Source of the DNA: Chamaelirium japonicum
Lineage: Eukaryota > Streptophyta > Magnoliopsida > Liliales > Melanthiaceae
Reading direction: 5' to 3'
Length of the DNA: 64,000 nt
Assembly (NCBI GenBank): GCA_947650365.1
Contig: CANTAL010000147.1
Coordinates: forward strand, 725,867 to 789,866
A program made the position numbers and the translations under genes. Of this stretch, positions 1 to 64,000 are shown piece by piece. Positions within the stretch are counted from its first letter, which is position 1. Each line of letters opens with the position of its first letter. The notes under the pieces were generated by a model. That model did no database searches. It saw nothing but the letters and a program-made list of their open reading frames with translations, and had not been told where the DNA came from.

Positions 1-2949
1 GTGTGAAAGAATTAGAATGGATCGTACGAATGATTAGAATGGATCGTGCGAATGAATTAAAATGGATCGTATGAATGAATTAGAATGGATACATTTGTGC
101 GAATGAATTAGAATGGATCATACGAATGAATTAGAATGGATCGTATGAATGAATTAGAATGGATCGTATGAATGAATTAGAATGGATCGTGCGAATGAAT
201 TAGAATGGATCGTACGAATGAATTAGAATGGATCGTACGAATGAACTAGAATGGATACATTCGTGCGAATGAATTACAATGGATCGTACGAATGAATTAG
301 AATGGATCTTACGAATGAATTAGAATGGATCGTACGAATGAATTAGAATGGATCGTACGAATGAATTAGAATGGATACATTCTTGCGAATGAATTAGAAT
401 GGATCGGACGAATGAATTAGAATGGATCGTATGCTCGAATGTATCCATTCTAATCCATTCGTACGACCCATTCTAATTCAGTCGCATGAATGTAACCAGT
501 CTAATTCATTCATTTGATCCATTCTAATTCATTCGTACGATCCATTCTAATTCATTCATACGATCCATTCTAATTCATTCGTACGATCCATTCTAATTCA
601 TTCGCATGAATGTAACCGTTCTAATTCATTCATTTGATCCTTCGTACGATCCATTCTAATTCATTCGTACGCTCCATTCTAATTCATTCGAACAAATGTA
701 TCCATTCTAATTCAATCATACGATCCATTCTAATTCATTCGTAAGATCCATTCTAATTCATTCGTACGATCCATTCTAATTCATTCGCACGATCCATTCT
801 AATTCATTCGCACGATCCATTCTAATTCATTTGCACGAATATATCCATTCTAATTCATTCGTACGATCTATTCTAGTTTCTTCGTACGATCCATTCTAAT
901 TCATTCGTACGATCTATTCTAATTCATTCGTACGATCCATTCTAATTCATTCGCACGATCCATTCTAATTCATTCATAGGATCCATTCTATTTCATTCAT
1001 ACGATCTATTCTAATTCTTTCGCACGAATGTATCCATTCTAATTCATTCGCACGAATGTATCCATTCTAATTCATTCGTATGAATCCATTCTAATTCATT
1101 CGTACAATCTATTCTATTTCATTCGTATGATCCATTCTAGTTCATTCGTACGATCCATTCTAATTCATTCGTATGTATTTCATTCGTAAGATCCATTCTT
1201 ACTCATTCGTATGATCCATTATGGATACATTCGTGCGAATGAATTAGAATGGATCATACGAATGAGTAAGAATGGATCATACGAATGAAATAGAATGGAT
1301 TGTGCGAATAAATTAGAATGGATCGTAGAATGGATCAGAATAGATCATGTGAAAGGATTAGAATAGATTGTATGAATGAATTAGAATGAATTCGTACGAT
1401 CCATTCGAATTCATTCGCACGATCCATTCTAATTCATTCATGCGATCCATTCTAATTCTTTCACACAATCTATTCTATCTATTCTACGATCCATTCTAAT
1501 TCATTCGCACAATCCATTCTATTTCATTCGTACGATCCATTCTTACTTATTCGTATGATCCATTCTAATTAATTCGCACGAATGTATCCATAATAGATCA
1601 TACGAATGAGTAAGAATGGATCGTACGAATGAAATAGAATGGATTGTACGAATGAATTTGAATGGATCGTGCGAATGACTTAGAATGGATCCTACGAATG
1701 AATTAGAATGGATCGTACGAATGAACTAGAATGGATACATTCGTGCGAATGAATTAGAATGGATCGTACGAATGAATTAGAATGGATCGTACGAATGAAT
1801 TAGAATGGATCTTACGAATGAAATATAATGGATTGTACGAATGAATTAGAATGGTTCGTACGAATGAAATATAATAGATTGTACGAATGAATTAGAATGG
1901 ATCGTACGAATGAATTAGAATGTGTACGAATGAATTAGAATGGATCCTACGAATGAATTAGAATAGTTCGTGTGAAAGAATTAGAATGGATTATATGAAT
2001 GAATTAGAATGAATTCGTACGATCCATTTGAATTTATTCGCACGATCCATTCTAATTCATTCATACGATCAATTCTAATTCATTCATACAATCCATTCTA
2101 ATTCTTTCACACGATCCATTCTAATTCATTCGTAGGATCCATTCTAATTCATTCGTACAATCTATTCTATTTCATTCGTACGATCCATTCTAATTCATTC
2201 GTACAATCCATTCTATTTCATTCGTAAGATCCATTCTAATTCATTCGTACGATCCATTCTAATTCATTCGTACGGTCCATTCTAATTCATTCGCACGAAT
2301 GTATCCATTCTAGTTCATTCGTACGATCCATTCTAATTCATTCGTACGATCCATTCTAAGTCATTCGCACGATCCATTCAAATTCATTCATACGATCAAT
2401 TCTAATTCATTCATACAATCCATTCTAATTCTTTCACACGATCCATTCTAATTCATTCATATGATCCATTCTAATTCATTCGGACGAATGTATCCATTCT
2501 AATTTATTCGTACGATCCATTCTAATTCATTCGTACGATCCATTCTAATTCATTCGTACTATCCATTCTAATTCATTCGTCCGATCCATTCTAATTTATT
2601 CGCACGAATGTATCCATTCTAATTCATTCATACGATCCATTCTAATTCATTCGTACGATCCATTCTATTCTAGTTCATTCGTACGATCCATTATAATTCA
2701 TTCGCACGATCCATTCTAATTCATTCGTACGATCAATTCTAATTCATTCGCACGAATGTATCCATTCTAATTCATTCGCACGATCCATTCTAATTCATTC
2801 GTACGATCCATTCTAATTCATTCATACAATCCATTCTAATTCTTTCACACGATCTATTCTAATTCATTCGTAGGATCCATTCTAATTCATTCGTACACAT
2901 TCTAATTCATTCGTACGATCCATTCTAATTCATTCGTATCATCCATTCT

Positions 2950-3160
2950 AATTCATTCGTACGATCCATTCTAATTCATTCGCACAATCCATTCTATTTC
3001 ATTCGTACGATCCATTCTTACTCATTCGTATGATCCATTCTAATTCATTCGCACGAATGTATCCATAATGGATCATACGAATGAGTAAGAATGGATCGTA
3101 CGAATGAAATTGAATGGATTGTGCGAATGAATTAGAATGGACCGTACGAATGAATTAGAC
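2950..3160. repeat. long inverted repeat, arms about 90 bp, at a CCATAATGG switch
   Basis: The left arm (about 2950-3039) and right arm (about 3066-3160) are reverse complements with only a couple of mismatches, separated by about 27 bases ending in CCATA. Both arms carry the same rare monomer series, including the TTACTC/GAGTAAG and CTATTTC/GAAATAG variants, so this is more than background satellite complementarity. The same hairpin recurs at about 46565-46775. Confidence 0.8.
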
Positions 3161-3429
3161 GTATGAATGAATTAGAATGGATACATTCGTGCGAATAAAT
3201 TAGAATGGATCATACGAATGAGTGATCCATTCTAATTCATTCGTATGATCCATTCTAATTCATTCGTACGATCCATTCCAATTCATTCGTAAGATCCATT
3301 CTAATTCATTCGCACAAATGTATCCATTCTAATTCATTCGTACGATCCATTCTAATTCATTCGTAAGATCCATTCTAATTCATTCGTACGATACATTCTA
3401 ATTCATTCGTACGATCCATTCTAATCATT

Positions 3430-6400
3430 CGCGAATGTATCCATTCTAATTCATTCGTACGATCCATTCAAATTCATTCGTACGATCCATTCTAATTCCT
3501 TCGTACGACCCATTCTAATTCATTCGTACGATCTATTCTAATTCATTCGTACGATCCATTCTAATTCATTCGTACGATCCATTCTAATTCCTTCGTACGA
3601 TCCATTCTAATTCATTTGTACGATCTATTCTAATTCATTCGTATGATCCATTCAATATAATTCGTATGATCCATTCTATTTAATTCGTACGATCCATTCT
3701 AATTCATTCGTATGAATTAGAATGGATCATACGAAAGAATTAGAATAGATCGTACGAATGAATTAGAATGGATCGTACGAAGGAATTAGAATGGATCGTA
3801 CGAATGAATTAGAATGGATCGTACGAATGAATTAGAATAGATCGTACGAATGAATTAGAATGGATCGTACAAAGGAATTAGAATGGATCGTATGAATGAA
3901 TTAGAATGGATCGTACGAATGAACTAGAATGGATACATTCGTGCGAATGAATTAGAATGGATCGTACGAATGAATTAGAATGGATCGTACGAATGAATTA
4001 GAATGGATACATTCGCGAATGAATTAGAATGGATCGTACGAATGAATTAGAATGGATCGTACGAATGAATTAGAATGGATCTTACGAATGAATTAGAATG
4101 GATCGTACGAATGAATTAGAATGGATCGTACGAATGAATTAGAATGGATACATTTGTGCGAATGAATTAGATTGGATCGCACGAATGAATTAGAATGGAT
4201 CGTACGAATGAATTAGAATGGATCGTACGAATGAATTAGAATGGATCATACGAATGAATTAGAATGGATCATACGAATGAGTAAGAATGGATCATACGAA
4301 TGAATTAGAATGGATCATGTGAAAGAATTAGAATGGATCGTACGAATGAATTAGAATGGATCGTGTGAATGAATTAGAATGGATCGAACGAATGAATTAG
4401 AATGGATATGTTTGTGCGAATGAATTAGAATGGATCGTACGAATGAATTAGAATAGATCGTGTGAAAGAATTAGAATGGATTGTACGAATGAATTAGAAA
4501 GGATCCGATGAATGAATTTGAATGGATCGTGCGAATGAATTAGAATGGATCGTATGAATGAATTAGAATGGATCAAATGAATGAATTCGAATGTACGAAT
4601 GGATTAGAATGGATCGTACGAATGGATTAGATTGGATACATTCGTCCGAATGAATTAGAATGGATTGTATTAATGAATTAGAATGGATCGTACGATCCAT
4701 TCGAATTCATTCGCACGATCCATTCTAATTCATTCGTATGATCCATTCTAATTCATTCATACGATCCATTCTAATTCATTCGTACGATCCATTCTAATTC
4801 ATTCGTATATTCCATTCTAAGATCCTACGAATAAATTAGAATGGATCGTACGAATGAATTAGAATGGATCGTACGAATGAATTAGAATGGATCGTGCGAA
4901 TGAATTAGAATGGATACATTCGTGCGAATGAATTAGAATGGATCGGACGAATGAATTAGAATGGATCGTACGAAAGAATTAGAATGGGTCAAATGAATGA
5001 ATTCGAATGGTTACATTCATGCGAATGAATTAGAATGGATCGTACGAATGGATTAGAATGGATCGTACGAATGAACTAGAATGGATACATTCGTGCGAAT
5101 GAATTAGAATGGATCATACGAATGAATTAGAATGGATCTTACGAATGAATTAGAATGGATCGTACGAATGAATTAGAATGGATCGTACGAATGAATTAGA
5201 ATGGATACATTCGTGCGAATGAATTAGAATGGATCGGACGAATGAATTAGAATGGATCGTACGAATGAATTAGAATGGATCAAATGAATGAATTAGAATG
5301 GTTACATTCATGCGAATGAATTAGAATGGTTTGTACGAATGGATTAGAATGGATCGTACGAATGGATTAGAATGGATACATTCGAGCGAATGAATTAGAA
5401 TGGATCGTACGAATGAATTAGAATAGATCGTACGAATGGATTAGAATGGATCCTACGAATGGATTAGAATGGATACCTTTGTGCAGAATGGATTGTACGA
5501 ATGAATTAGAATGGATACATTCGTGTACGATCCATTCTAATTCATTCGCACGAATGTATCCATTCTAATTCATTCGTACGATCCATTCTAATTAATTAAT
5601 ATGATCTATTCTAATTCATTCGTACGATCCATTCTAATTCATTCGTATGATCCATTCTAATTCATTCGGACGAATGTATCCATTCTAATTTATTCGTACG
5701 ATCCATTCTAATTCATTCGTACAATCCATTCTAATTCATTCGTACGATCCATTCTAATTCATTCGTCCGATCCATTCTAATTCATTCGCACGAATGTATC
5801 CATTCTAATTCATTCGTACGATCCATTCTAATTCATTCGTACGATCCATTCTAATTCATTCGTAAGATCCATTCTAGTTCATTCGTACGATCCAGTCTAA
5901 TTCATTCGTACGATCCATTCTAATTCATTCGCACGAATGTATCCATTCTAGTTCATTCGTACGATCCATTCTATTTCATTCGTACGATCCATTCTTACTC
6001 ATTCGTATGATCCATTCTAATTCATTCGGATGAATGTATCCATTCTAATTTATTCGTACGATCCATTCTAATTCATTCGTACGATCCATTCTAATTCATT
6101 CGTACGATCCATTCTAATTCATTCGTCCGATCCATTCTAATTCATTCGCACGAATGTATCTATTCTAATTCATTCGTACGATCCATTCTAATTCATTCGT
6201 CAGATCCATTCTAATTCATTCATACGATCCATTCTAATTCATTTATACGATCCATTCTAATTCATTCGCACGAATGTATCCATTCTAGTTAATTCGTACG
6301 ATCCATTCTAATTCATTCGTACGATCCATTCTAATTCATTCGCATGATCCATTCTAATTCATTCGTACGATCAATTCTAATTCATTCGCACGAATGTATC

Positions 6401-6626
6401 CATTCTAATTCATTCGTACGATCCATTCTAATTCATTTGTAGGATCCATTCTAATTCATTCGTACAATCCATTCTAATTCTTTCACACGATCCATTCTAA
6501 TTCATTCGTACGATCCATTTTAATTCATTCGCACAAACGTATCCATTCTAATTCATTCGTACGATCCATTCTAATTCATTCGTACGATCCATTCTAATTC
6601 ATTTGTACGATCCATTCTAATTCATT
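3430..6626. repeat. 3.2-kb higher-order satellite block, copy 1
   Basis: This stretch is repeated directly by the next 3 kb. It contains the same series of polarity blocks (R, F, short R, F, R) and the same private variants. Anchors: the R-to-F switch near 3715 matches 6914; the F-to-R palindromic switch at 4685 matches 7861; a GTGCAG junction at 5481 matches 8588; a TAGTTAATTC variant near 6288 matches 9418. Offsets change from 3199 to 3176 to 3107 to 3130, always by 23 or 69 bases, so copies differ by whole monomers. Confidence 0.85.
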
Positions 6627-9620
6627 CGCACAAATGTATCCATTCCAATTCCTTCGTACGATCCATTCAAATTCATTCGTACGATCCATTCTAATTCCTT
6701 CGTACGATCCATTCTAATTCATTCGTACGATCTATTCTAATTCATTCGTACGATCCATTCTAATTCATTCGTACGATCCATTCTAATTCCTTCGTACGAT
6801 CCATTCTAATTCATTCGTACGATCCATTCTAATTCATTCGTATGATCCATTCAAATTAATTCGTATGATCCATTCTAATTAATTCGTACGATCCATTCTA
6901 ATTCATTCGTATGAATTAGAATGGATCATACGAAGGAATTAGAATAGATCGTACGAATGAATTAGAATGGATCGTACGAAGGAATTAGAATGGATCGTAC
7001 GAATGAATTAGAATGGATCGTACGAATGAATTAGAATAGATCGTACGAATGAATTAGAATGGATCGTACGAAGGAATTAGAATGGATCATACGAATGAAT
7101 TAGAATGGATCGTACGAATGAACTAGAATGGATACATTCGTGCGAATGAATTAGAATGGATCGTACGAATGAATTAGAATGGATTGTACGAATGAATTAG
7201 AATGGATACATTCGCGAATGAATTAGAATGGATCGTATGAATGAATTAGAATGGATCGTACGAATGAATTAGAATGGATCTTACAAATGAATTAGAATGG
7301 ATTGTACGAATGAATTAGAATGGATCGTACGAATGAATTAGAATGGATACATTTGTGCGAATGAATTAGAATGGATCGTACGAATGAATTAGAATGGATC
7401 GTACGAATGAATTAGAATGGATCGTACGAATGAATTAGAATGGATCATACGAATGAGTAAGAATGGATCATACGAATGAATTAGAATGGATCATGTGAAA
7501 GAATTAGAATGGATCGTACGAATGAATTAGAATGGATCGTGCGAATGAATTAGAATGGATCGTACGAATGAATTAGAATGGATACGTTTGTGCGAATGAA
7601 TTAGAATGGATCGTACGAATGAATTAGAATGGATCGTGTGAAAGAATTAGAATGGATTGTACAAATGAATTAGAATGGATCCGATGAATGAATTAGAATG
7701 GATCGAGCGAATGAATTAGAATGGATCGTACGAATGAATTAGAATGGATCAAATGAATGAATTCGAATGTACGAATGGATTAGAATGGATCGTACGAATG
7801 GATTAGAATGGATACATTCGTCCGAATGAATTAGAATGGATTGTATGAATGAATTAGAATGGATCGTACGATCCATTCGAATTCATTCGCACGATCCATT
7901 CTAATTCATTCGTATGATCCATTCTAATTCATTCATATGATCCATTCTAATTCATTCGTACGATCCATTCTAATTCATTCGTATATTCCATTCTAAGTTC
8001 CTACGAATGAATTAGAATGGATCGTACGAATGAATTAGAATGGATCGTACGAATGAATTAGAATGGATCGTGCGAATGAATTAGAATGGATACATTCGTG
8101 CGAATGAATTAGAATGGATCGGACGAATGAATTAGAATGGATCGTACGAATGAATTAGAATTGATCAAATGAATGAATTAGAATGGTTACATTCATGCGA
8201 ATGAATTAGAATGGATCGTACGAATGGATTAGAATGGATCGTACGAATGAACTAGAATGGATACATTCGTGCGAATGAATTAGAATGGATCGTACGAATG
8301 AATTAGAATGGATACATTCGTGCGAATGAATTAGAATGGATCGGACGATTGAATTAGAATGGATCGTACGAATGAATTAGAATAGATCAAATGAATGAAT
8401 TAGAATGGTTACATTCATGCGAATGAATTAGAATGGTTTGTACGAATGGAATAGAATGGATCGTACGAATGGATTAGAATCGATACATTCGAGCGAATGA
8501 ATTAGAATGGATCGTATGAATAAATTAGAATGGATCATACGAATGGATTAGAATGGGTCCTACGAATGGATTAGAATGGATACCTTTGTGCAGAATGGAT
8601 TGTACGAATGAATTAGAATGGATACATTCGTGCACGATCCATTCTAATTCATTCGCACGAATATATCCATTCTAATTCATTCGTACGATCCATTCTAATT
8701 CATTAATATGATCCATTCTAATTTATTCGTACGATCCATTCTAATTCATTCGTATGATCCGTTCTAATTCATTCGGACGAATGTATCCATTCTAATTTAT
8801 TCGTACGATCCATTCTAATTCATTCGTACAATCCATTCTAATTCATTCGTACGATCCATTCTAATTCATTCGTCCGATCCATTCTAATTCATTCGTACGA
8901 ATGTATCCATTCTAATTCATTCGTACGATCCATTCTAATTCATTCGTACGATCCATTCTAATTCATTCGTAAGATCCATTCTAGTTCATTCGTACGATCC
9001 ATTCTAATTCATTCGTACGATCCATTCTAATTCATTCGCACGAATGTATCTATTCTAGTTCATTCGTACGATCCATTCTATTTCATTCGTACGATCCATT
9101 CTTACTCATTCGTATGATCCATTCTAATTCATTCGGACGAATGTATCCATTCTAATTTATTCGTACGATCTATTCTAATTCATTCGTACGATCCATTCTA
9201 ATTCATTCGTACGATCCATTCTAATTCATTCGTCCGATCCATTCTAATTTATTCGCATGAATGTATCCATTCTAATTCATTCGTACGATCCATTCTAATT
9301 CATTCGTACGATCCATTCTAATTCATTCGTCAGATCCATTCTAATTCATTCGTACGATCCATTCTAATTCATTCATACGATCCATTCTAATTCATTCGCA
9401 CGAATGTATCCATTCTAGTTAATTCGTACGATCCATTCTAATTCATTCGTACGATCCATTCTAATTCATTCGGACGATCCATTCTAATTCATTCGTACGA
9501 TCAATTCTAATTCATTCGCACGAATGTATCCATTCTAATTCATTCGTACGATCCATTCTAATTCATTTGTACGATCCATTCTAATTCATTCATACAATCC
9601 ATTCTAATTCTTTCACACGA
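6627..9620. repeat. 3.2-kb higher-order satellite block, copy 2
   Basis: Direct tandem copy of 3430-6626, with scattered substitutions and net loss of whole 23-bp monomers. Similarity fades after about 9620, where copy 2 continues into the 166-bp module while copy 1 (after about 6490) does not. Because copies keep identical internal inversions, the inversions predate the duplication. Confidence 0.85.
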
Positions 9621-11353
9621 TCCATTCTAATTCATTCGTAGGATTCATTCTAATTCATTCGTACAATCTATTCTATTTCATTCATACGATCCATTCTTAC
9701 TCATTCGTATGATCCATTCTAATTCATTCGCACGAATGTATCCATTCTAATTCCTTCGTACGAATCTATTCTAATTCATTCGTACAATCTATTCTATTTC
9801 ATTCGTACGATCCATTCTTACTCATTCGTACGATCCATTCTAATTCATTCATAAGATCCATTCTAATTCATTCGTACGATCCATTCTAATTCATTCGCAC
9901 GAATGTATCTATTCTAGTTCATTCGTACGATCCATTCTAATTCATTCGTACGATCCATTGTAATTCATTCGCACGATCCATTCTAATTCATTCGTACGAT
10001 CAATTCTAATTCATTCGCACGAATGTATCCATTCTAATTCATTCATACGATCCTTTCTAATTCATTCGTACGATCCATTCTAATTCACTCATACGATCCA
10101 TTCTAATTCCTTCGTACGTTCCATTCTAATTCATTCGTCCGATCTATTCTAATTCATTCGTACGATCCATTCTAATTCATTCGTACGATCCATTCTAATT
10201 CGTTCATACGATCCATTCTAATTCATTCGTACGATCCATTCTAATTCATTCGTACAATCTATTCTAATTCATTCGTACGAATGGATACATTCGTGTGAAT
10301 GAATTAGAATGGATCGTACGAATGAGTAAGAATGGATCATACGAATGAAATAGAATGGATTGCACGAATGAATTAGAATGGATCGTACGAATGAATTAGA
10401 ATGGATCGTGTGAAAGAATTAGAAAGGATTGTATGAATGAATAAGAATGGATCGTACGAATGAATTAGAATGGATCGTACGAATGAATTAGATTGGATCG
10501 TACGAATGAATTAGAATAGATCGTAATAATGAATTAGAATGGATCGTACGAAGGAATTAGAATGGATCGTACGAATGAATTAGAATGGATATATTCGTGC
10601 AAATGAATTAGAATGGATCGTATGAATGTATTAGAATGGATCGTATGAGTGAATTAGAATGGATCGTACGAATGAATTAGAATGGATCGTATGAATGAAT
10701 TAGAATGGATACATTCGTGTGAATGAATTAGAATGGATCGTATGAATGAATTAGAATAGATTTTGTTAATGAATTAGAACTGATCGTACGAATGAATTAG
10801 AATGGATACATTCGTGCGAATGAATTAGAATGGATTGTATGACTGAATTAGAATGGATCGTACGAATGAATTAGAATGGATCATATGAGTGAATTAGAAT
10901 GGATACGAAGGAATTAGAATGGATCGTACGAATGAATTAGAATGGATCATACGAAGCAATTAGAATGGATCGTATGAATAAATTAGAATGGATCGTACGA
11001 ATGAATTAGAATAGATCGTACGAATGAATTAGAATGGATCGTACGAAGGAATTATAATGGATCGTACGAATGAATTAGAATGGATCGTACGAATGAACTA
11101 GAATGGATACATTCATGCGAATGAATTAGAATGGATCGTACAAATGAATTAGAATGGATCGTACGAATGAATTAGAATGGATCTTACGAATGAATTAGAA
11201 TGGATCGTACGAATGAATTAGAATGGATCGTACGAATGAATTAGAATGGATACATTCGTGCGAATGAATTTGAATGGATAGGATGAATGAATTAGAATGG
11301 ATCGTACGAATGAATTAGAATGGATCGTACGAATGAATTAGAATGGATCGTAC

Positions 11354-11519
11354 GAATAAATTATAATGGATACATTCGTCCGAATGAATTAGAATGGATC
11401 ATACGAATGAGTAAGAATGGATCGTACGAATGTATTAGAATAGATTGTACGAATGAATTAGAATGGATTAGACGAATGAATTAGAATGGATCGTGTGAAA
11501 GAATTAGAATGGATTGTAT
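11354..11519 (+). repeat. 166-bp higher-order module, F copy
   Basis: Seven monomers in fixed order: a 28-mer ending CATTCGTCC, then 23-mers marked by ATCATAC, GAGTAAG, a GAAATAG-like/ATTGTAC unit (here GTATTAG), a CpG-variant unit, ATCGTGT, and GAAAGAATTAG/ATTGTAT. Total 28 + 6 x 23 = 166. Here the fifth unit ends ATTAGAC. Other F copies are listed separately. Confidence 0.85.
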
Positions 11520-11608
11520 GAATGAATTAGAATGGATCGTATGAATGAATTAGAATGGATCGTACGAATGAATTCGAATGGATCGTACGAATTCATTCTA
11601 ATTCATTC

Positions 11609-12582: not shown

Positions 12583-12622
12583 ATCCATTCTAATTCATTC
12601 GTACGAATGAATTAGAATGGAT
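12583..12622. repeat. 40-bp perfect palindrome at an R-to-F switch
   Basis: Twenty bases on each side of the centre (between 12602 and 12603, inside CGTACG) are exact reverse complements, with no spacer. The left half is an R monomer and the right half an F monomer meeting at the shared CGTACG hexamer. This is the cleanest of the polarity switches. Confidence 0.92.
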
Positions 12623-35204: not shown

Positions 35205-35206
35205 TT

Positions 35207-50110: not shown

Positions 50111-53099
50111 ATTATAATAGATTGTATGAATGAATTAGAATGGATCGTACGATCAATTCTAACTCATTCGGACGAAAATATCCATTCTAATTCATTCGTA
50201 CGATCCATTCTAATTCATTTGTACGATCCATTCTAATTCATTCATACAATCCATTCTAATTCTTTCACACGATCCATTCTAATTCATTCGTAGGATCCAT
50301 CCTAATTCATTCGTACAATCTATTCTATTTCATTCGTACGATCCATTCTTACTCATTCATATGATCCATTCTAATTCATTCGCACGAATGTATCCATTCT
50401 AATTCATTCGTACGAATCCATTCTAATTCATTCGTACAATCCATTCTATTTCATTCATACGATCCATTCTTACTCATTCGTACGATCCATTCTAATTCAT
50501 TCGTAATATCATTCTAATTCATTCGTACGATCCATTCTTACTCATTGGTACGATCTATTCTAATTCATTCGCAGGAATGTATCCATTCTAATTCATTCGT
50601 ACGAATCCATTCTAATTCATTCGTACAATCTATTCTATTCCATTCTAATTCATTCGTACGAACCATTCTTACTCATTCGTACGATCCATTCTTATTCATT
50701 CATACGATCCATTCTATTCTAGTTCAATCGTACGATCCATTCTAATTCATTCGTACAATCCATTCTTATCCATTCTTACTCATTCGTATAATCCATTCTA
50801 ATTCATTTGGACGAATGTATCCATTCTAATTGATTCGTACGATCCATTCTAATTCATTCGTACGATCAATTCTAATTCATTCGTAAGATACATTCTAATT
50901 CATTCGTATGATCTATTCTAATTCATTCATACGATCAATTCGAATTCGATCGTACGATCCATTCTAATTCATTCGTACGATCCATTCTTATTCATTCGTA
51001 CGATCCATTCTAATTCACTCATACGATCCATTCAAATATATTCATAGGATCCATTCTAATTCATTTGCACGAATATATCCATTCTAATTCATTCGTACGA
51101 TCCATTCTAATTCATTCGTACGATCCATTCTAATTCATTCGTACGATCCATTCTAATTCATTCGTACGATCCATTTTAATTCCTTCGTACGAATGAATTA
51201 GAATGGATACATTTGTGCGAATGAATTAGAATGGATCGTACGAATGAATTAGAATTGATCGTATGAATTAATTAGAATGGATCGTACAAATGGATTAGAA
51301 TGGATCTTACGAATGAATTAGAATGGATCGTACGAATGAATTAGAATGGATCGTACGAATGAATTAGAATGGATATATTCGTGCATATGAATTAGAATGG
51401 ATCGTATGAATGTATTAAGATGGATCGTATGAATGAATTAGAATAGATCGTACGAATGAATTAGAATGAATCGTACGAAGGAATTAGAATGGATCGTACG
51501 AATGAATTAGAATGGATCGTATGAATTAGAATGGATATATTCGTGCAAATGAATTAGAATGGATCGTATGAATGTATTAGAATGGATCGTATGATTGAAT
51601 TAGAATGGATCGTACGAATGAATTAGAATGGATCGTATGAATGAATTAGAATGGATACATTCGTGCGAATGAATTTGAATTGATCATACGAATGAATTAG
51701 AATGGATCGTGCGAATGAATTAGAATGGATCGTACAAATGAATTAGAATGGATCGTACGAATGAACTAGAATGGATACATTCGTGCGAATGAATTAGAAT
51801 GGATCGTACGAATGAATTAGAATGGATCGTACGAATGAATTCGAATGGATCGTGCTAATGAATTAGAATGGATCGTACGATCTATTCTAATTCTTTCGCA
51901 CGACTGTATCCATTCTAATATATTCGCACGAATGTATCCATTCTAATTCATTCGTACGATCCATTCTAAATCATTCGTACAATCCATTCTATTTCATTCG
52001 TACGATCAATTCTAATTCATTAGCATGATCCATTCTATTTCATTCGTACGATCCATTCTAATTCATTCGTACGATCCATTCTAATTCATTCGGACGAATG
52101 TATCCATTCTAGTTCATTCGTACGATCCATTCTAATTCATTCGTACGATCTATTCTAATTCATTCGCACGATCCATTCTAATTCATTCGTACGATCAATT
52201 CTAATTCATTCGCACGAATGTATCCATTCTAATTCATTCATACGATCCATTCTAATTCATTCGTACGATCCATTCTAATTCACTAATACGATCCATTCTA
52301 ATACATTCATACGATCCATTCTAATTCATTTGCACGAATATATCCCTTCTAATTAATACGATCCATTCTAATTCATTCATACGATCCATTTTAATTCCTT
52401 CGTACGATCTATTCTAATTCATTCGTACGATCTATTCCAATTCATTCGTACGATCCATTCTAATTCATACGTACGATCCATTCTAATTCATTCGTACGAT
52501 CCATTTTAATTCATTCTTAAGATCCATTCTAATTCATTCGTACGATCCATTCGAATTCATTCGTACGATCCATTCTAATTCATTCGCACGAATGTATCCA
52601 TTCTAGTTCATTCGTACGATCCATTCTAATTCATTCGTACAATCCATTCTAATTCATTCGTACGAATATATCCATTCTAATTCATTTGTATAATCCATTC
52701 TAATTCATTCGCACGATCCATTCTAATTCATTAGTACGATCCATTCTAATTCATTCGTATGATCCATTCTAATTAATTCGTATGATCCATTCTAATTCAT
52801 TCGTACGATCCATTCTAATTCATTTGCACGAATATATCCATTCTAATTCTAATTCATTAGCACGATCTATTCTAATTCATTCATACGATCCATTCTAATT
52901 CATTCGCACGAATGTATCCATTCTAATTCATTCATACGATCCATTCTAATTCATTCGCACGATCCATTCTAATTCATTAGCACGAATATATCCATTCTAA
53001 TTCATTCACACGATCCATTCTAATTCATTCGTACGATCCATTCTAATTCATTCATACGATCCATTCTAATTCATTCGCACGAATGTATCCATTCTAATT

Positions 53100-54190
53100 G
53101 ATTAGCACGATCCATTCTAATTCATTCGTATGATCCATTCTAATTCCTTCGTACGATCCATTCTAATTCCTTCGTATCCATTCTAATTCACTCATACGAT
53201 CCATTCTAATTCATTCATACGATCTATTCTAATTCATTCATACAATCCATTCTAATTCTTTCACACGATCCATTCTAATTCATTCGTACGATACATTCTA
53301 ATTCATTCGCACAATCCATTCTAATTCATTCGCACGAATGTATCCATTCTAAATCATTCGTACAATCCATTCTATTTCATTCGTACGATCCATTCTTACT
53401 CATTGTACGAATGAATTAGAATGGATCCTACGAATGAATTAGAATGGATCGTGTGAAAGAATTAGAATGGATCGTACGAATGAATTAGAATGGATACATT
53501 CGTGCGAATGAATTAGAATGGATATATTCGTGCGAAAGAATTAGAATAGAACGTATGAATGAATTAGAATGGATCCTATGAATGAATTAGAATTGATCGT
53601 ACGAATGAAATAGAATGGATTGCACGAATGATTTAGAATGGATCGTACGAATGAATTACAATGGATCGTGAGAAAGAATTAGAATGGATTGTATGAATGA
53701 ATTACAATGGATCGTACGAATGAATTAGAATGGATCGTACGAAGGAATTACAATGGATCGTACAAAAGTATTAGAATGGATCCTATGAATGAATTAGAAT
53801 GGATCGTGCGAATGAATTAGAATGGATCGTACGAATGAATTAGAATGGATCGTGCTAATGAATTAGAATTGATCGAACGAATGAATTAGCATGGATCGTG
53901 CTAATGAATAAGAATAGATCGTGCAAATGAATTAGAATGGATCGTACGAATGAATTAGAATGGATCGTACGAATGAACTAGAAAGGATACATTCGTGCGA
54001 ATGAATTAGAATGGATCGTACGAATGAATTAGAATGGATCGTACGAATGAATTAGAATGGATCGTACGAATGAATTAGAATGGATCGTGCGAATGAATTA
54101 GAATGGATCGTACGAATGAATTAGAATGGATTCGTACGAATGAATTAGAATGGATACATTCGTGCGTACGAATGAATTAGAATGGATCGT
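53100..54190. repeat. satellite block, copy 2 of 48960-50110
   Basis: Direct copy with whole-monomer indels. Just upstream (about 52680-53170) lies a different patch that matches 41230-41740 at an offset of 11,434, so this region is a mosaic of pieces from several places. Confidence 0.8.
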
Positions 54191-57100
54191 ACGAATGAAT
54201 TAGAATAGATTGTATGAATGAATTATAATGGATCGTACGAATGAATTAGAATGGATCATACGAATTAATTAGAATGGATCATACGAATGAATTAGAATGG
54301 ATCGTACGAATGAATTAGAATGGATCGTACGAATGAATTAGAATGGATACATTCGTGCGAATGAATTAGAATGGATTGTGCGAATGAATTAGAATGGATC
54401 GTACGAATGAATTAGAATGGATCATATTAATGAATTAGAATGGATCGTACGATTGAATTAGAATGGATACATTCGTGCGAATGAATTAGAATGGATCGTG
54501 CACGAATGTATCCATTCTAATTCATTCGTACGATCCATTCTAATTCATTAATATGATCCATTCTAATTCATTCGTACGATCCATTCTAATTCATATGCAC
54601 AAAAATATCCATTCTAATCCATTCGTAGGATCCATTCTTATCCATTCGTACGATCCATTCCAATTCATTCGTACGATCCATTCTAATCCATTCGTACGAT
54701 CCATTCTAATCCATTCGTACGATCCATTCTAATCCATTCGTACGATCCATTCTAATTCATTCGCATGAATGTAACCATTCTAATTCATTCATTTGATCCA
54801 TTCTAATTCATTCGTACGATCCATTCTAATTCATTCGTCCGATCCATTCTAATTCATTCGCACGAATGTATCCATTCTAATTCATTCGTACGATCCTTTC
54901 TAATTCATTCATACGATCCATTCTAATTCATTCGTAAGATCCATTCTAATTCATTCGTACGATCCATTCTAATTCATTCGCACGAATGTATCCATTCTAG
55001 TTCATTCGTACGATCCATTCTAATTCATTCGTACGATCCATTCTAATTCATACGCACGATCCATTCTAATTCATTCGTACGATCAATTCTAATTCATTCG
55101 CACGAATGTATCCATTCTAATTCATTCATACGATCCATTCTAATTCATTCGTACGATCCATTCTAATTCATTCGTACGATCCATTCTAATTCATTCGTCC
55201 GATCCATTCTAATTCATTCGCACGAATGTATCCATTCTAGTTCATTCGTACGATTCATTCTATTTCATTCGTACGATCCATTCTTACTCATTCGTATGAT
55301 CCATTCTAATTCATTCGGACGAATGTATCCATTCTAATTTATTCGTACGATACATTCTAATTCATTCGTACGATCCATTCTAATTCATTCGTCCGATCCA
55401 TTCTAATTCATTCGCACGAATGTATCCATTCTAATTCATTCGTACGATCCATTCTAATTCATTCGTCCGATCCATTCTAATTCATTCGCACGAATGTATC
55501 CATTCTAATTCATTCGTACGATCCATTCTAATTCATTCGTACGATCCATTCTAATTCACTCGTAAGATCCATTCTAATTCATTCGTACGATCCATTCTAA
55601 TTCATTCGCACGAATGTATCTATTCTAGTTCATTCGTACGATCCATTCTAATTCATTCGCACGATCCATTCTAATTCATTCGTACGATCAATTCTAATTC
55701 ATTCGCACGAATGTATCCATTCTAATTCATTCGTACGATCCATTCTAATTCATTCGTAGGATCCATTCTAATTCATTCATACAATCCATTCTAATTCTTT
55801 CACACGATCCATTCTAATTCATTCGTAGGATCCATTCTAATTCATTTGTACAATCTATTCTATTTCATTCGTACCTTCCATTCTTACTCATTCGTATGAT
55901 CCATTCTAATTCATTCGCACGAATGTATCCATTCTAATTCATTCGTACGAATCCATTCTAATTCATTCGTACAATCCATTCTATTTCATTCGTACGATCC
56001 ATTCTTACTCATTCGTACGATCCATTCTAATTCATTCGTAAGATCCATTCTAATTCATTCGTACGGTCCATTTTAATTCATTCGCACGATCCATTCTAAT
56101 TCATTCATACAATCCATTTTAATTTATTCCGTATGATCCATTCTAATTCATTCGCTCGAATGTATCCATTCTAATCCATTCGTACGATCCATTCTAATCC
56201 ATTCGTACGATCCATTCTAATTCATTCGCATGAATGTAACCATTCTAATTCATTCATTTGATCCATTCTAATTCATTCGTATGATCCATTCTAATTCATT
56301 AGCACGATCCATGCTAATTCATTCGTTCGATCAATTCTAATTCATTAGCACGATCCATTCTAATTCATTCGTACGATCCATTCTAATTTATTCGCACGAT
56401 CCATTCTAATTCATTCATAGGATCCATTCTAATTCATTCATACGATCTATTCTAATTCTTTCGCACGAATGTATCCATTCTAATTCATTCGCACGAATGT
56501 ATCCATTCTAATTCATTTGTACGAATCCATTCTAATTCATTCGTACAATCTATTCTATTTCATTCGTACGATTCATTCTAGTTCATTCGTACGATCCATT
56601 CTAATTCATTCGTACGATCCATTCTAATTAATTCGTATGATCTATTCTAATTAATTCGTATGATCCATTCTAATGCATTCGTACGATCCATTCTAATTCA
56701 TTCATACAATCCATTCTAATTCATTCGCACGAATGTATTCATTCTAATTAATTCGTACAATCCATTCTAATTCATTCGTATGATCCATTCTTATTCATTC
56801 GCACGATCCAGTCTGATGGATTCAGATGATCCATTCTAATTCATTCGCACGAATAAATCCATTCTAATTCATTCATACGATCCATTCTAGTTCATTCGTA
56901 CGATCCATTCTAATTCATTCGCACAAATGTATCCATTCTAATTCATTCGTACGATCCATTCTAATTCATTCGTACGATCAGTTCTAATTCATTCACAAAA
57001 TCTATTCTAATTCATTCATACGATCCATTCTAATTCATTCGCACGATCCATACTAATTCATTCGTACGATCCATTCTAATTCTTTCACACGATCCATTCT

Positions 57101-58268
57101 AATTCATTCGTACGATCCATTCTAATTCATTCGTACGATCCATTCTAATTCATTCATACGATCCATTCTAATTCATTCGTACGATCCATTCTAATTCATT
57201 CGCACAAATGTATCCAATCTAATTCTTTCATACGATCCATTCTTACTCATTTGTATGATCCATTATATTTCATTCGTACGATCTATTCTAATTCATTCGT
57301 ACGATCCATTCTAATTCATTCGTACGATCCATTCTAATTCATTCGTATGATCCATTCTAATTCATTCATACAATCCATTCTAATTCTTTCACACGATCTA
57401 TTCTAATTCATTCGTATGATCCATTCTAATTCATTCGTGCAATCCATTCTATTTCATTCGTACGATCCATTCTTACTCATTCGTACGATCCATTCTAATT
57501 CATTCACACGAATGTATCCATTCGTACGAATGAATTAGAATAGATTGTACGAATGAATTAGAATGGATCGTACGAGTGAATTAGAATGGATCGTACGAAG
57601 GAATTAGAATGGATCGTACGAATGAATTAGAATGGATTGCACGAATGAATTAGAATAGATCGTACGAATGAATTAGAATGGATCGTACGAAGGAATTAGA
57701 ATGGATCGTACGAATGAATTAGACTGGATCGTACGAATGAATTTGAATGGATACATTTGTGCGAATGAATCTAAATGGATTGTATGAATGAATTACAATG
57801 GATCGTACGAATGAATTAGAATGGATCGTACGAATGAATTAGAATAGCTCATATGAATGAATTAGAATGAATCGTATGAATGAATTAGAATGGTTATATT
57901 CGTGCAAATAAATTAGAATAGATCGTACGAATGAATTAGAATGGATCGTACGAATAAATTAGAATGGATCGTGGGAATGAATTAGAATGGATCGTACGAA
58001 TGAATTAGAATGGATCCACCAAATGAGTTAGAAAGGATCATACGAATGAATTAGAATGGATTGTACGAATGAATTAGAATGGATAAATGAAATAGAATGG
58101 ATTGTACGAATGAATTAGAATGGATCGTGTGAATGAATTAGAATGGATCGTACGAATGAACTAGAATGGATACATTCGTGCGAATGAATTAGAATGGATC
58201 GTAAGAATGAATTAGAATGGATCGTACGAATGAATTAGAATGGATCTTACGAATGAATTAGAATGGAT

Positions 58269-58273
58269 CGTAC
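58269..58273. repeat. target-site duplication CGTAC (left)
   Basis: Same five bases as 59197-59201. They form the end of the satellite monomer. Confidence 0.9.
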
Positions 58274-58729
58274 TGTAACATCCGCCCCAAACACACAAGA
58301 TATTATTCGCTTTGCTCGTGCCCAAACGAGAACTTCCCCGGGGGTCACCCATCCTGGTACTACTCTCGCCCGAGCACGCTTAACTACGGAGTTCTTACGA
58401 AATCCATAGCGGCGCACGGTTTTAAAACGCGTCTTGGCAGGAAAGGTGGTGAGCCCCCAAACACAAGATATTGTCCTCTATTGGTCTATTGGGTATCGAA
58501 CCCTCAACCTCAAGGTTTTGCAGTAGCGTGGTTACCATCGAACCACCTAGAACGCGTCTCTTATGTTTGAGAGAGAAAATTATATAAGTAGCTCAGGATC
58601 TCCTTCTCTCCAGGCGATGTGGGGCTAACTCATGGCCTTGTACACCTCACCTCACCTCATCCATCTTGGCATTCCCGCCTCAGGAGTCTTGGCTCTTGGC
58701 TATTGGCCTATTGGATCTTGGTCGTCACA
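58274..58729 (-). repeat. 3' LTR of the Cassandra-like element, chimeric
   Basis: 456 bp, TGTAACATCC...GTCGTCACA on the plus strand. From about 58406 to 58503 roughly 98 bases replace some 30 bases of the 5S-like region in the other LTR. The replacement includes TTTTAAAACGCGTC and GATATTGTCCTCTATTGG, which resemble another common plant TRIM-like LTR (the one with GAGGACAATATCTGC on its own strand). A minus-strand TATATAAT lies at 58579-58586. Confidence 0.9.
58316..58405 (-). pseudogene. truncated 5S rRNA-like sequence in the 3' LTR
   Basis: The minus strand has AACTCCGTAGTTAAGCGTGC, GGGCGAGAGTAGTACCAGG and ATGGGTGACC, corresponding to the middle and 3' part of plant 5S rRNA, including the A-box, intermediate element and C-box of the internal Pol III promoter. 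The first 40 or so bases are replaced by foreign sequence, except a GGGTTCGATACCC remnant near 58491-58503 that may be the original 5' end. Confidence 0.85.
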
Positions 58730-58746
58730 ATCCACCCCCCTTAGGG
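58730..58746 (-). other. polypurine tract of the Cassandra-like element
   Basis: Minus strand CCCTAAGGGGGGTGGAT directly before the TGTGACGACC start of the 3' LTR. Confidence 0.8.
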
Positions 58747-58792
58747 CTACACGTCCTCGTGTAGGGTTAGACCCCCCATAGCGAGGAGATCC

Positions 58793-58805
58793 GGCTCTGA
58801 TACCA
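58793..58805 (-). other. primer binding site of the Cassandra-like element
   Basis: Minus strand TGGTATCAGAGCC, three bases after the 5' LTR end. It complements initiator tRNA-Met, as in the copia element, and sets the minus orientation. Confidence 0.9.
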
Positions 58806-58808
58806 TTT

Positions 58809-59196
58809 TGTAACATCCGCTCCAAACACACAAGATATTGTCCGCTTTGCTCGTGCTCGCACGAGAACTTCCCAGGGAGGTCACCCATCCTGGTACTACT
58901 CTCGCCCGAGCACGCTTAACTACGGAGTTCTTATGGGATCCGGTGCTTTAGTGCTGGTATGATCGTACCCTCAATCTCAAGGTTTTGCAGTAGCATGGTT
59001 ACCATCGAACCACCTAGAACGCGTCTCTTATGCTTGAGAGGAGAAATTATATAAGTAGCTCAGGATCTCCTTCTCTCCAGGCGATGTGGGGCTAACTCAT
59101 GGCCTTGTACACCTCACCTCACCTCATCCATCTTGGCATTCCCGCCTCAGGAGTCTTGGCTCTTGGCTATTGGCCTATTGGATCTTGGTCGTCACA
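58809..59196 (-). repeat. 5' LTR of the Cassandra-like element
   Basis: 388 bp, TGTAACATCC...GTCGTCACA on the plus strand. It carries a full-length 5S-like sequence (58851-58970). A minus-strand TATATAAT at 59046-59053 lies about 75 bases upstream of the 5S start and may be the Pol II TATA box. The outer part (from about 58971) is nearly identical to that of the other LTR. Confidence 0.92.
58851..58970 (-). ncRNA. 5S rRNA-like sequence within the Cassandra 5' LTR
   Basis: About 120 nt, close to the plant 5S length. The minus strand starts GGGTACGATCATACCAGC, continues CACCGGATCCCATAAGAACT, then AGTTAAGCGTGCTCGGGCGA, GAGTAGTACCAGGATGGGTG and ACCTCCCTGGGAAGTTCTCG. These match plant 5S along nearly the whole length. 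A-box, intermediate element and C-box are all present, so Pol III transcription is plausible. The last ten or so bases differ from genuine 5S (GAGCACGA where 5S ends GCACCCC), which would change the terminal helix. It is thus a retroelement 5S, not a ribosomal 5S gene. No T-run terminator follows directly. Confidence 0.88.
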
Positions 59197-59201
59197 CGTA
59201 C
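59197..59201. repeat. target-site duplication CGTAC (right)
   Basis: Matches 58269-58273, after which F-polarity satellite resumes in phase. Confidence 0.9.
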
Positions 59202-60768
59202 GAATGAATTAGAATGGATCATACGAATAAATTAGAATGGATCGTGGGAATGAATTAGAATGGATCATACGAATGAATTAGAATGGATCCACCGAATGAG
59301 TTAGAATGGATCATACGAATGAATTAGAATGGATCGTACAAATGAATTAGAATAGATCGTATGAATGAATTAGACTGGATCATACGAATGAGTAAGAATG
59401 GATCGTATGAATGAATTAGATTGGATACATTTGTGCGAATGAATTAGAATGGATCGGACGAATGAATTAGAATTAGAATGGATTGTATGAATGAATTAGA
59501 ATGGATCGTACGAATGAATTAGAATGGATCATACGAATTAATTAGAATGGATCATACGAATGAATTAGAATGGATCGTACGAATGAATTAGAATGGATCG
59601 TACGAATGAATTAGAATGGATACATTCGTGCGAATGAATTAGAATGGATTGTGCGAATGAATAAGAACAGATCGTGCGAATGAATTAGAATGGATCCATT
59701 CTAATTCTTTCACACGATCCATTCTAATTCATTCGTACGATCCATTCTAATTCATTCGTACGATCCATTCGAATTCATTCGCACGATCCATTCTAATTCA
59801 TTCATATGATCCATTCTAATTCATTCATACAATCCATTCTAATTCTTTCACACGATCCATTCTAATTCATTCGTACGATCCATTCTAATTCATTCGTACA
59901 ATCCATTCTATTTCATTCGTACGATCCATTCTTACTCATTCGTATGATCCATTCTAACTCATTCGTATGATCCATTCTAATTCATTCGTACGATCCATTC
60001 TAATTCATTCGTACGATCCATTCTAATTCATTCACACGATCCATTCTAATTCATTCATACGATCCATTCTAATTCATTCATACGATCCATTCTAATTCAT
60101 TCCTACAATCCATTCTAATTCATTCGCCCGATCCATTCTAATTCATTCATACGATCCATTCTATTCGAATGGATCATGCGATCCATTCGAATTCATTTGC
60201 ACGATCCATTCTAATTCATTCATACGATCCATTCTAATTCATTCATACAATGCATTCTAATTCTTTCACACGATCCATTCTAATTCATTCGTACGATCCA
60301 TTCTAATTCATTCGTACAATCCATTCTATTTCATTTGTACGATCCATTCTTACTCATTCGTATGATCCATTCTAATTCATTCGTACGATTCATTCTAATT
60401 TATTTGTACGATCCATTCTAATTCATTCATACAATCCATTCTATTTCATTCGTACGATCCATTCTTACTCATTCGTATGATCCATTCTAATTCATTCGCA
60501 CGAATGTATCCATTCTAATTCATTCCTACAATCCATTCTAATTCATTCCGTACGATCCATTCTAATTCATTCGTACGATCGTACAAATGAATTAGAATGG
60601 ATCGTACGAATGAATTAGAATAGATTGTGCAAATGAATTAGAATGGATCGTACGAATGAATTAGAATGGATCGTACGAATAAATTAGAATGGATCATACG
60701 AATGAGTAAGAATGGATCGTACGAATGAATTAGAATGGTTCGTACAAATGAATTAGATTGGATCGTAC

Positions 60769-60934
60769 AAATAAATTAGAATGGATACATTCGTCCGAAT
60801 GAATTAGAATGGATCATACGAATGAGTAAGAATGGATCGTACGAATGAAATAGAATAGATTGTACGAATGAATTAGAATGGATCCTACGAATGAATTAGA
60901 ATGGATCGTGTGAAAGAATTAGAATAGATCGTAC
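60769..60934 (+). repeat. 166-bp higher-order module, F copy
   Basis: Complete seven-monomer order identical to the reference at 17084-17249, 43.7 kb away, with a few substitutions (first base A, last unit AGATCGTAC in place of GGATTGTAT). Confidence 0.83.
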
Positions 60935-62929
60935 GAATGAATTAGAATTGATCGTACGAATGAAATAGAATGGATTGTACGAATGATTTAGAATGGATCG
61001 TACGAATGAATTAGAATGGATCGTACGAATGATTTAGAATGGATACATTCGTGCGAATGAATTAGAATGGATCATACGAATGAGTAAGAATGGATCGTAC
61101 GAATGAAATAGAATGGATCGTACGAATGAATTAGAATGGATCGTGCGAATGAACTAGAATGGATCGTACGAATGAACTAGAATAGATACATTAGAATGGA
61201 TCGTATAAATGTATTAGAATGGATCGTATAAATGAATTAGAATGGATCTTACGAATGAATTAGAATGGATCGTATGAATGAATTAGAATGGATCGTATAA
61301 ATGTATTAGAATGGATCGTATGAGTGAATTAGAATGGATCGTATAAATGTATTAGAATGGATCATATGAGTGAATTAGAATGGATCGTACGAATGAATTA
61401 GAATGGATCGTATGAATTAATTAGAATGGATACATTCGTGCGAATGAATTAGAATTGATCGTACGAATGAATTATAATGGATCGTGCGAATGAATTAGAA
61501 TGGATCGTACGAATGAATTAGAATGGATCGTACGAATGAACTAGAATGGATACATTCGTGCGAATGAATTAGAATGGATCGTACGAATGAATTAGAATGG
61601 ATCGTACGAATGAATTAGAATGGATCGTGCTAATGAATTAGAATTGATCGTACGAATGAAATATAATGGATTGTACGAATGATTTAGAATGGATCGTACG
61701 AATGAATTAGAATGGATACATTCGTGCGAATGAATTAGAATGGATACATTCGTGCGAAAGAATTAGAATAGATCGTATGAATGAATTAGAATGGATCCTA
61801 TGAATGAATTAGAAAGGATCGTGCGAATGAAATAGAATGGATCGTGCTAATGAATTAGAATTGATTGAACGAATGAATTAGCATGGATCGTGCTAATGAA
61901 TTAGAATGGAACGTACGAATGAATTAGAATGGATCGTGTGAAAGAATTAGAATGAATTGTATGAATGAATTAGAATGGATCGTATGAATGTATTCGAATG
62001 GATCGTACGAATTCATTCTAATTCATTCATACAATCCATTCTAATTCTTTCACGCGATCTATTCTGATCCATTCTACGATCCATTCTAATTCATTCGCAC
62101 AATCCATTCTATTTCATTCGTACGATCCATTCTTACTCATTCGTATGATCCATTCTAATCCATTCTAATTCATTCATACAATCCATTCTAATTCTTTCAC
62201 ACGATCCATTCTAATTCATTCGTAGGATCCATTCTAATCCATTCGTACAATCTATTCTATTTCATTCGTACGATCCATTCTTACTCATTGGTACGATCCA
62301 TTCTAATTCATTCCATTCTAATTCATTCGCTCGAATGTATCCATTCTAATCCATTCGTACGATCCATTCTAATTCATTCTAGTTCATTCATACAATCCAT
62401 TCTAATTTATTCGCATGAATGTATCCATTCTAATTCATTTGCACGATCCATTCGAATTCATTCCTATGATCTATTCTAATTCATTCGTAAGATCCATTCT
62501 AATTCATTCTAATTCATTCGTACGATCCATTCTACGATCCATTCTAATTCATTCGTATATTCCATTCTAATTCATTAGCACGATCCATGCTAATGAATTA
62601 GAATGGATCGTGTGAATGAATTAGAATGGATCGTATGAATGAATTAGAATGGATCGTGCGAATGAATTCGAATGGATCACATGATCCATTCGAATAGAAT
62701 GGATCGTATGAATGAATTAGAATTTATCGGGCGAATGAATTAGAATGGATTGTAGGAATGAATTAGAATTGATCGTATGAATGAATTAGAATAGATCGTA
62801 TGAATGAATTAGAATGGATCGTGCGAATGAATTAGAATGGATCGTACGAAAGAACTAGAATGGATCGTACGAATGAAATAGAATGGATCATACGAATGAA
62901 TTAGAATAGTTCGTACGAATGAATTAGAA

Positions 62930-63720
62930 TGCATCGTACGAAAGAATTAGAGTGGATATATTCGTGCGAATTAATTAGAATGGATCGTACGAATGAATTA
63001 GACTGGATCGTACAAATGAATTTGAATGGATACATTTGTGCGAATGAATCTAAATGGATTGTATGAATGAATTACAATGGATCGTACGAATGAATTAGAA
63101 TGGATCGTACGAATGAATTAGAATGGATCAAATGAATGAATTGGAATGGTTACATTCATGCGAATGAATTAGAATGGATCGTACGAATGGATTAGAATGG
63201 ATCGTATGAGTGAATTAGAATGGATACGAAGGAATTAGAATGGATCGTATGAAGGAATTAGAATGGATCATACGAATGAAATAGAACGGATCGTACGAAG
63301 GAATTAGAATGGATCGTACGAAGGAATTAGAATGCATTCGTATGATCCATTCTAATTCATTCGGACGAATGTATCCATTCTAATTTATTCGTACGATCCA
63401 TTCTAATTCATTCGTACGATCCATTCTAATTCATTCGTACGATTCATTCTAATTCATTCGTACGATCCATTCTTACTCATTCGTATGATCCATTCTAATT
63501 CATTCGTACGATCCATTCTAATTCATTCGCACGAATGTATCCATTCCATTCGTACGATCCATTCATACGATCTATTCTAATTCATTCATACAATCCATTC
63601 TAATTCTTTCACACGATCCATTCTATTTCATTCGTACGATCCATTCTAATTCATTCGTACGATCCATTCTAATTCATTCGTACGATCCATTCTAATTCAT
63701 TCTAGTTCATTCGTACGATC
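62930..63720. repeat. satellite block, copy 2 of 47504-48260
   Basis: Direct copy at offset 15,428, including its internal F-to-R switch near 63340 (AATGCATTC). Copy 2 has an extra monomer around 63440-63465 relative to copy 1. Confidence 0.82.
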
Positions 63721-64000
63721 CATTCTACGATCCATTAGACTGGATCGTGCGAATGAATAAGAATGGATCATACGAATGAATTAGAATGGATCGTACGAAT
63801 TAATTAGAATGGATACATTCGTGCGAATGAATTAGAATGGATACATTCGTGCGAATGAATTAGAATGGATTGTATGAATGAATTAGAATGGATCGTACGA
63901 ATGAATTAGAATGGATCATACGAATTAATTAGAATGGATCATACGAATGAATTAGAAGGGATCGTACGAATGAACTAGAATGGATCGTACAAATGAACTA

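What the first reader, a model, noticed from the sequence alone, without database searches (positions are those of the whole stretch)
1..64000. Satellite polarity flips more than 60 times
Minisatellites that grow by slippage or unequal exchange keep one orientation. Here F and R blocks of about 0.1-3 kb alternate throughout, before and after both transposon insertions. This suggests a mechanism that generates inversions, such as fold-back template switching at dyads, rather than simple unequal exchange.
Basis: seen in the sequence. Interest (0 to 1): 0.8.

Follow-up and report, generated by a model that had tools for sequence, protein, structure and literature searches.

The report
Copied polarity flips in plant minisatellite
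A plant DNA array built from a 23-letter repeat really does switch direction about 60 times, but many of those switches are copies of fewer, older ones that were duplicated together with their surroundings, in both directions.

Summary
Outside two retrotransposons the window is one ~53-kb array of a 23-bp unit. Its polarity flips 60-64 times by model decoding (penalties 11-40) and 62 times by exact 11-mers; a uniform-polarity control gives 0-2.

The flips are not all independent: the 64 fall into 34-39 families at strict thresholds (37-42 flips in multi-copy families, random joints 0.5-1.9) and 21 at a loose one (54 flips, random 13). Best matches elsewhere are direct and inverted in equal numbers (535 v 521 of 1056 windows), mostly over 2 kb away; flips ride inside copies.

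Arms across a flip are no more alike than arms of unrelated flips (0.846 v 0.843 over 230 bp), so local fold-back did not make most present blocks, and fold-back reads are an unlikely artefact. Joints do favour short sequence shared by both polarities (8 of 31 classes v 3.6%), so founding flips may still be dyad-driven.

Most likely: rare flips seeded at short dyads, multiplied by homology-directed copying blind to polarity. Comparable satellites are known (Tribolium madens). No reads, and not the source genome, could be examined.

The parts
1..27570 (.). 23-bp minisatellite array, left part, 37 polarity flips
   Evidence: Viterbi decoding; Tandem Repeats Finder period 23 on 1-8000
27571..37569 (-). 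LTR retrotransposon, perhaps copia-type (weak gag match, which also gives the strand), 2363-bp LTRs, TSD ATCTA; LTRs differ at 65 of 2363 sites
   Evidence: Pfam Retrotran_gag_2 E 0.054, below cut-off
37570..58273 (.). 23-bp minisatellite array, middle part, 21 polarity flips
58274..59196 (-). Cassandra-type TRIM, 5S rRNA match in each LTR, TSD CGTAC
   Evidence: Rfam RF00001 at 58315-58432 and 58852-58970, minus strand; ends and LTRs
59197..64000 (.). 23-bp minisatellite array, right part, 6 polarity flips
3224..10017 (+). direct tandem duplication, period ~3.2 kb (3224-5202 / 6443-8383, 97.3%); four flips occur twice (3712/6911, 4696/7872, 4821/7997, 5518/8625)
38254..57516 (.). large imperfect inverted duplication: 38254-41061 / 54699-57516 (96.9%) and 41742-44306 / 51936-54445 (96.6%), the second part with a flip inside
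3755..6627 (+). block with three flips whose inverted copy is 43935-46667 (95.5%)
41216..43519 (.). most similar inverted pair listed: arms 41216-41849 and 42817-43519 (631 of 634 aligned bases identical, 69 gapped columns, ~1 kb loop); left edge 22 bp from flip 41194
41110..41200 (.). compound flip F>R>F>R within ~66 bp with the same joint core twice; resembles a template-switch scar (inference)
   Evidence: called only at lenient switch penalties
1392..1392 (.). type copy of the largest flip family at the 88% core threshold (12: 1392, 2015, 11594, 13774, 16604, 17498, 18899, 23536, 24340, 47907, 62014, 63335), both orientations; the last-joined three (24340, 47907, 63335) match the type at only 86-89%
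4696..4696 (.). type copy of the second flip family, on the palindrome AATGGATCGTACGATCCATT (8: 4696, 7872, 25996, 27153, 45799, 48635, 50153, 51881); four match at 100%, the others at 89-93% and could be recurrent

Best explanation
This is a plant 23-bp minisatellite array of mixed polarity. Flips were seeded rarely by inverted joints, preferably at short palindromes shared by the two strands of the unit (TCGTACGA, AATT). Many were then multiplied as passengers, when kb-scale segments were copied from distant places in the array. Since both polarities are present, a broken F end can pair with an R block on its other strand, so homology-directed copying (SDSA- or BIR-like repair, or exchange plus inversion between inverted monomers) gives direct and inverted copies equally and more often than not rejoins in the same polarity. 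Shown: the flips, their recurring joints, the 1:1 direct and inverted copies, copies that carry flips, and non-mirrored arms. Inferred: the repair pathway and the seeding at dyads.
For: 64 flips form 48, 39 and 31 classes at 97, 95 and 91% over +-60 bp and 34, 23 and 21 families at 95, 90 and 88% over 44-bp cores. The same clustering of 64 random chimeric joints (12 sets) gives on average 64.0, 63.7, 52.0 and 63.0, 59.5, 56.8. Flips in multi-copy families: 37 v 0.5 (+-60 bp, 95%), 42 v 1.9 (core, 95%), 54 v 13.2 (core, 88%). Best matches of 1056 windows of 300 bp: 535 direct, 521 inverted; under 2 kb away in 17 of 535 and 25 of 521. 67 strict pairs, partly overlapping: 29 direct, 38 inverted; 113 of 134 ends have no flip within 20 bp. 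80% of the array lies in a >=500-bp, >=93% pair. Arms across flips equal unrelated arms. Joints share >=4 bp in 8 of 31 classes. The LTR-element insertion site is empty in a direct (~10.1 kb) and an inverted (~57.3 kb) copy that carry the same flip as 37707. In simulation unequal exchange plus de novo inversions gave 0-5% inverted copies; adding exchange between inverted monomers gave 13-34%.
Against: No simulation setting reached the observed ~49% inverted share, so that model is incomplete, and polarity-blind copying itself was not simulated. In the looser set of 259 overlapping pairs, 27.7% of 517 ends lie within 15 bp of a flip against 7.5% by chance, and polarity beyond the end was same 272, opposite 154, mixed 91, so some copying creates or stops at flips. 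The family count depends on the threshold (19 to 48), and at the loose thresholds part of the merging is chance. Families at the perfect dyad could be recurrent rather than copied. A slight excess in 1-kb arm scores remains (median 405 v 364.5).
Confidence: 0.6

Rival explanations
1. Local fold-back (snap-back) template switching at dyads makes each flip by copying the adjacent strand backwards.
For: Joints are enriched for short sequence shared by both polarities (8 of 31 classes with >=4 bp). One very similar inverted pair with a ~1 kb loop abuts a flip. A compound flip lies at 41.1 kb. 1-kb arms have a somewhat higher median local score than the null (405 v 364.5; 90th percentile 568 v 562; 61 own, 140 null).
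Against: Anchored arms: 41 junctions at 230 bp, median 0.846 v null 0.843, 2 of 41 above the null's 95th percentile; 57 at 115 bp, 0.841 v 0.838, 4 above; 59 at 69 bp, 0.833 v 0.836, 1 above. Inverted best matches lie mostly kilobases away (25 of 521 under 2 kb).
Confidence: 0.15
2. Unequal exchange plus reciprocal inversion between inverted monomers, without inverted copying: direct duplications are later turned round by flip-neutral inversions.
For: Such inversions join F to F and keep the flip number (reasoning). Copies and joint families occur in both orientations. In simulation this raises the inverted share from 0-5% to 13-34%.
Against: The observed share of inverted best matches is 521 of 1056. 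Adjacent direct copies, expected from unequal exchange, are scarce (8 of 535 direct best matches under 1 kb; one clear ~3.2-kb tandem duplication).
Confidence: 0.2
3. Assembly artefact or chimeric fold-back reads.
For: Satellites are hard to assemble (general knowledge); no reads could be examined.
Against: Fold-back artefacts would give near-identical mirrored arms; arms are ~84% alike. Many copies of flips differ by a few per cent, and two copies of one flip region lack the retrotransposon. A mosaic misassembly of genuine distant blocks is less well excluded.
Confidence: 0.05

Closest known systems
Tribolium madens TmSat1/TmSat2 macro-dyad satellite arrays (PMC13081366; abstract and passages seen)
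   Same: Satellite arrays that change polarity; the sites of change recur with conserved sequence (2044 INV_1a sequences, 98.9% similar); the authors report seeing them on raw HiFi reads.
   Different: Units derived from ~110 bp, predominantly two subarrays per array with kb-long arms; here a 23-bp unit, plant DNA, 61-65 blocks in 53 kb.
Human satellites 2 and 3 (PMC4022460; passages seen)
   Same: CATTC-based short-unit satellite; [quoted passage not shown]
   Different: No sequence comparison was made here beyond the shared CATTC word; the passages seen do not analyse flips.
Cassandra TRIM retrotransposons (titles and abstract starts in the listing)
   Same: 5S rRNA sequence in each LTR of a short element.
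   Different: It interrupts the array; nothing suggests that it causes the flips.

Membership tests
Minisatellite / short-unit satellite | Head-to-tail tandem unit of about 10-100 bp | tested here: met
   Period 23 on 1-8000; 90.9% of array bases match the decoded unit
Macro-dyad satellite arrays (Tribolium type) | Polarity changes inside arrays | tested here: met
   60-64 flips
Macro-dyad satellite arrays (Tribolium type) | Recurrent, conserved inversion sites | tested here: met
   Multi-copy joint families hold 37, 42 or 54 of 64 flips by threshold, random joints 0.5, 1.9 or 13.2
Macro-dyad satellite arrays (Tribolium type) | Predominantly two long subarrays per array | tested here: not met
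   61 or more blocks, median ~0.72 kb
Macro-dyad satellite arrays (Tribolium type) | (Peri)centromeric, megabase-sized location | not testable with these tools
   The own-genome search did not complete
Cassandra TRIM | 5S rRNA sequence in both LTRs | tested here: met
   Two RF00001 hits above gathering score, one in each LTR (LTR bounds)
Ty1/copia LTR retrotransposon (27571-37569) | copia-type gag/pol | tested here: inconclusive
   Of two ORFs of at least 90 aa listed, the 102-aa one was scanned: Retrotran_gag_2 E 0.054, below cut-off

The most novel reading that the evidence does not exclude
In an array that holds both polarities, recombinational repair copying is blind to polarity: direct and inverted copies arise equally, so flips behave as neutral passengers that multiply and drift like alleles. 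The flip joints would then be countable markers from which the copying history of a satellite array can be read.
Probability: 0.4. Interest if true: 0.6.

Novelty: new variant of a known kind. Interest (0 to 1): 0.42.

Why it matters
Satellite evolution is commonly modelled as unequal exchange in one orientation (general knowledge). An array with ~60 flips, equal numbers of direct and inverted kb-scale copies and traceable flip joints gives evidence on how satellite segments are copied, and the joints allow part of the order of events to be worked out. It also warns that counting flips overstates how often inversions arise: here by a factor of about 1.6 to 3 (64 positions against 39 to 21 families).

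Tried and rejected
Rejected: that every flip is an independent event; local fold-back as the source of most present blocks; flips caused by the retrotransposons (flips lie throughout, and the flip nearest the large element occurs in two copies of the region without it).

Limits of the methods. The first arm test had no minimum overlap, so its high values at 69 bp (1.0 at 3067 and 46683) are not trustworthy; one search replaces it. The first self-BLAST was capped at 20,000 hits and dominated by ~84% background, so it was used only to suggest pairs. In the shared-base test each class was represented by its first member, and observed joints were read on the actual sequence while the null used consensus units. 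Pair lists overlap and are not counts of events. The simulation has arbitrary event sizes and shows plausibility only. The joined array used keeps two element bases in place of two array bases at the first insertion and has one extra element base at the second; the effect is a few bases in 53,069.

Led nowhere: four strings of the unit are in no paper of the held library, and a 29-bp piece is in no prokaryote genome contig, as expected for plant DNA. The species is unknown. The own-genome search did not complete in ten tries, so copy number and location elsewhere are unknown. Other paper searches gave the Tribolium and HSat papers and little else of use; one further paper opened by passages (PMC12058530) had nothing on satellite flips in the passage shown. 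These searches do not show that the pattern is unreported in plants.
Full report
What is there. Apart from two retrotransposons, the window is a continuous ~53-kb array of a 23-bp unit, GAATGAATTAGAATGGATCGTAC; 90.9% of array bases match the decoded unit. The elements are a ~10-kb LTR retrotransposon at 27571-37569 (TSD ATCTA; LTRs 2363 bp, 65 differences) and a Cassandra-type TRIM at 58274-59196 (TSD CGTAC; a 5S rRNA match in each LTR). Cassandra is described from plants (titles and abstract starts in the listing), so this is most likely plant DNA; the species is unknown.

The flips are real as sequence. The exact 11-mer method gives 62 and Viterbi decoding 64. A simplified decoder gives 60-64 for switch penalties from 11 to 40 and 150 at penalty 8; an array forced to one polarity gives 2 (penalty 11) or 0 (penalty 15). 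Block median is ~0.72 kb and the F share 54%.

The flips are not all independent. Clustering of +-60 bp around each of the 64 flips gives 48, 39, 36 and 31 classes at 97, 95, 93 and 91%. Clustering of 44-bp cores gives 34, 23, 21 and 19 families at 95, 90, 88 and 86%. The control is 12 sets of 64 random chimeric joints of the same array, clustered the same way. At 95% over +-60 bp, 37 flips are in multi-copy classes against 0.5 (range 0-4); at 95% over cores, 42 against 1.9 (0-4); at 88% over cores, 54 against 13.2 (8-25). So the sharing of joints is far beyond chance at every threshold, but the lower family counts contain some chance merging. Copies of one joint occur in both orientations: at 95% over +-60 bp, 22 inverted and 17 direct links. 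Example: the flips at 4821 and 7997 are direct copies, and the one at 45666 is their reverse complement. Some families sit on strong palindromes and could include recurrent events.

The array is a patchwork of copies in both directions. For 1056 windows of 300 bp the best match elsewhere is direct in 535 and inverted in 521; at >=95% identity, 279 and 323. Few lie within 2 kb (17 direct, 25 inverted). Refined pairs include a direct tandem duplication at 3.2-10.0 kb, an inverted duplication with arms at 38.3-44.3 and 51.9-57.5 kb (96.9% and 96.6% in two parts), and 3755-6627 against 43935-46667 inverted with three flips inside. 80% of the array is in some >=500-bp, >=93% pair. Pair lists overlap, so these are not counts of events.

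Is it fold-back? If a flip arises by snap-back copying, the sequence after it should mirror the sequence before it. It does not: median identity is 0.833 v 0.836 at 69 bp (59 flips), 0.841 v 0.838 at 115 bp (57) and 0.846 v 0.843 at 230 bp (41), where the null is arms of flips of other classes. One, four and two flips exceed the null's 95th percentile, about what chance gives. On 1-kb arms the median local score is somewhat above the null (405 v 364.5) with similar upper tails (568 v 562). The best single case for fold-back is an inverted pair with 631 of 634 aligned bases identical, 69 gapped columns and a ~1 kb loop beside the flip at 41194. Old fold-back events may have been blurred by later exchange, so the test excludes fold-back for recent, well-preserved blocks rather than for the founders. 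Joints share more bases between the two polarities than random joints do: >=4 bp in 8 of 31 classes (expected 3.6%, binomial p 1e-5) and >=8 bp in 4 of 31 (expected 1.7%, p 0.002). Three of these four (48635, 50153, 51881) are in one core family; counted once, the figures are 6 of 29 and 2 of 29.

Do copies make flips? In the strict set 21 of 134 ends lie within 20 bp of a flip in at least one copy; a single random point has a 5.1% chance, so about 10% is expected. In the looser set 27.7% of 517 ends are within 15 bp against 7.5%, and polarity beyond the end was the same in 272, opposite in 154 and mixed in 91. So more copies end within one polarity than at a change, but a good share end at flips. 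Both are compatible with homology-directed copying that sometimes rejoins non-homologously.

Timing. The insertion site of the large element is empty in a direct copy near 10.1 kb (96.4%) and an inverted copy near 57.3 kb (95.2%), and both copies carry the same flip as 37707. The simplest reading is that the flip and its copying are older than the insertion. With LTR divergence K2P 0.028 that is roughly 1-2 million years at commonly used rates (1.3e-8 and 7e-9, recalled). Gene conversion makes this rough.

Mechanism. Reciprocal inversion between inverted monomers joins F to F, so it cannot raise the flip number (reasoning). Unequal exchange copies flips but hardly inverts copies: in simulation the inverted share was 0-5%, against 13-34% with such inversions added, and ~49% was observed. 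Copying by strand invasion needs no rule about orientation, because an F end pairs with an R block on its other strand; this predicts 1:1 copies, often with same-polarity ends, and flips as passengers. It was not simulated. I hold it as most likely, with inversion between monomers as a close rival or partner.

Known relatives. Tribolium madens satellites show polarity changes at conserved inversion sites, which the authors report on raw HiFi reads (abstract and passages). Reads matching both strands were also noted for human HSat2,3 (passages). The kind is therefore known; the density of flips, the 23-bp unit and the unmirrored arms make this a variant.

Noticed in passing
58274-59196: Cassandra-type TRIM on the minus strand, LTRs 456 and 388 bp (70 gapped columns between them), 5S matches of 51 and 84 bits.
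   Followed up: partly
27571-37569: ~10-kb LTR element with 2363-bp LTRs; longest ORF listed 102 aa, so probably a decayed or non-autonomous element, perhaps copia-type.
   Followed up: partly
41110-41200: Compound flip with four polarity segments in ~66 bp and the same joint core twice; looks like a template-switch scar.
   Followed up: partly
5525-6911 (also 22-431): A 120-bp higher-order period with a variant unit holding ATACATTCGTGCGAATG, itself a near-palindrome.
   Followed up: no
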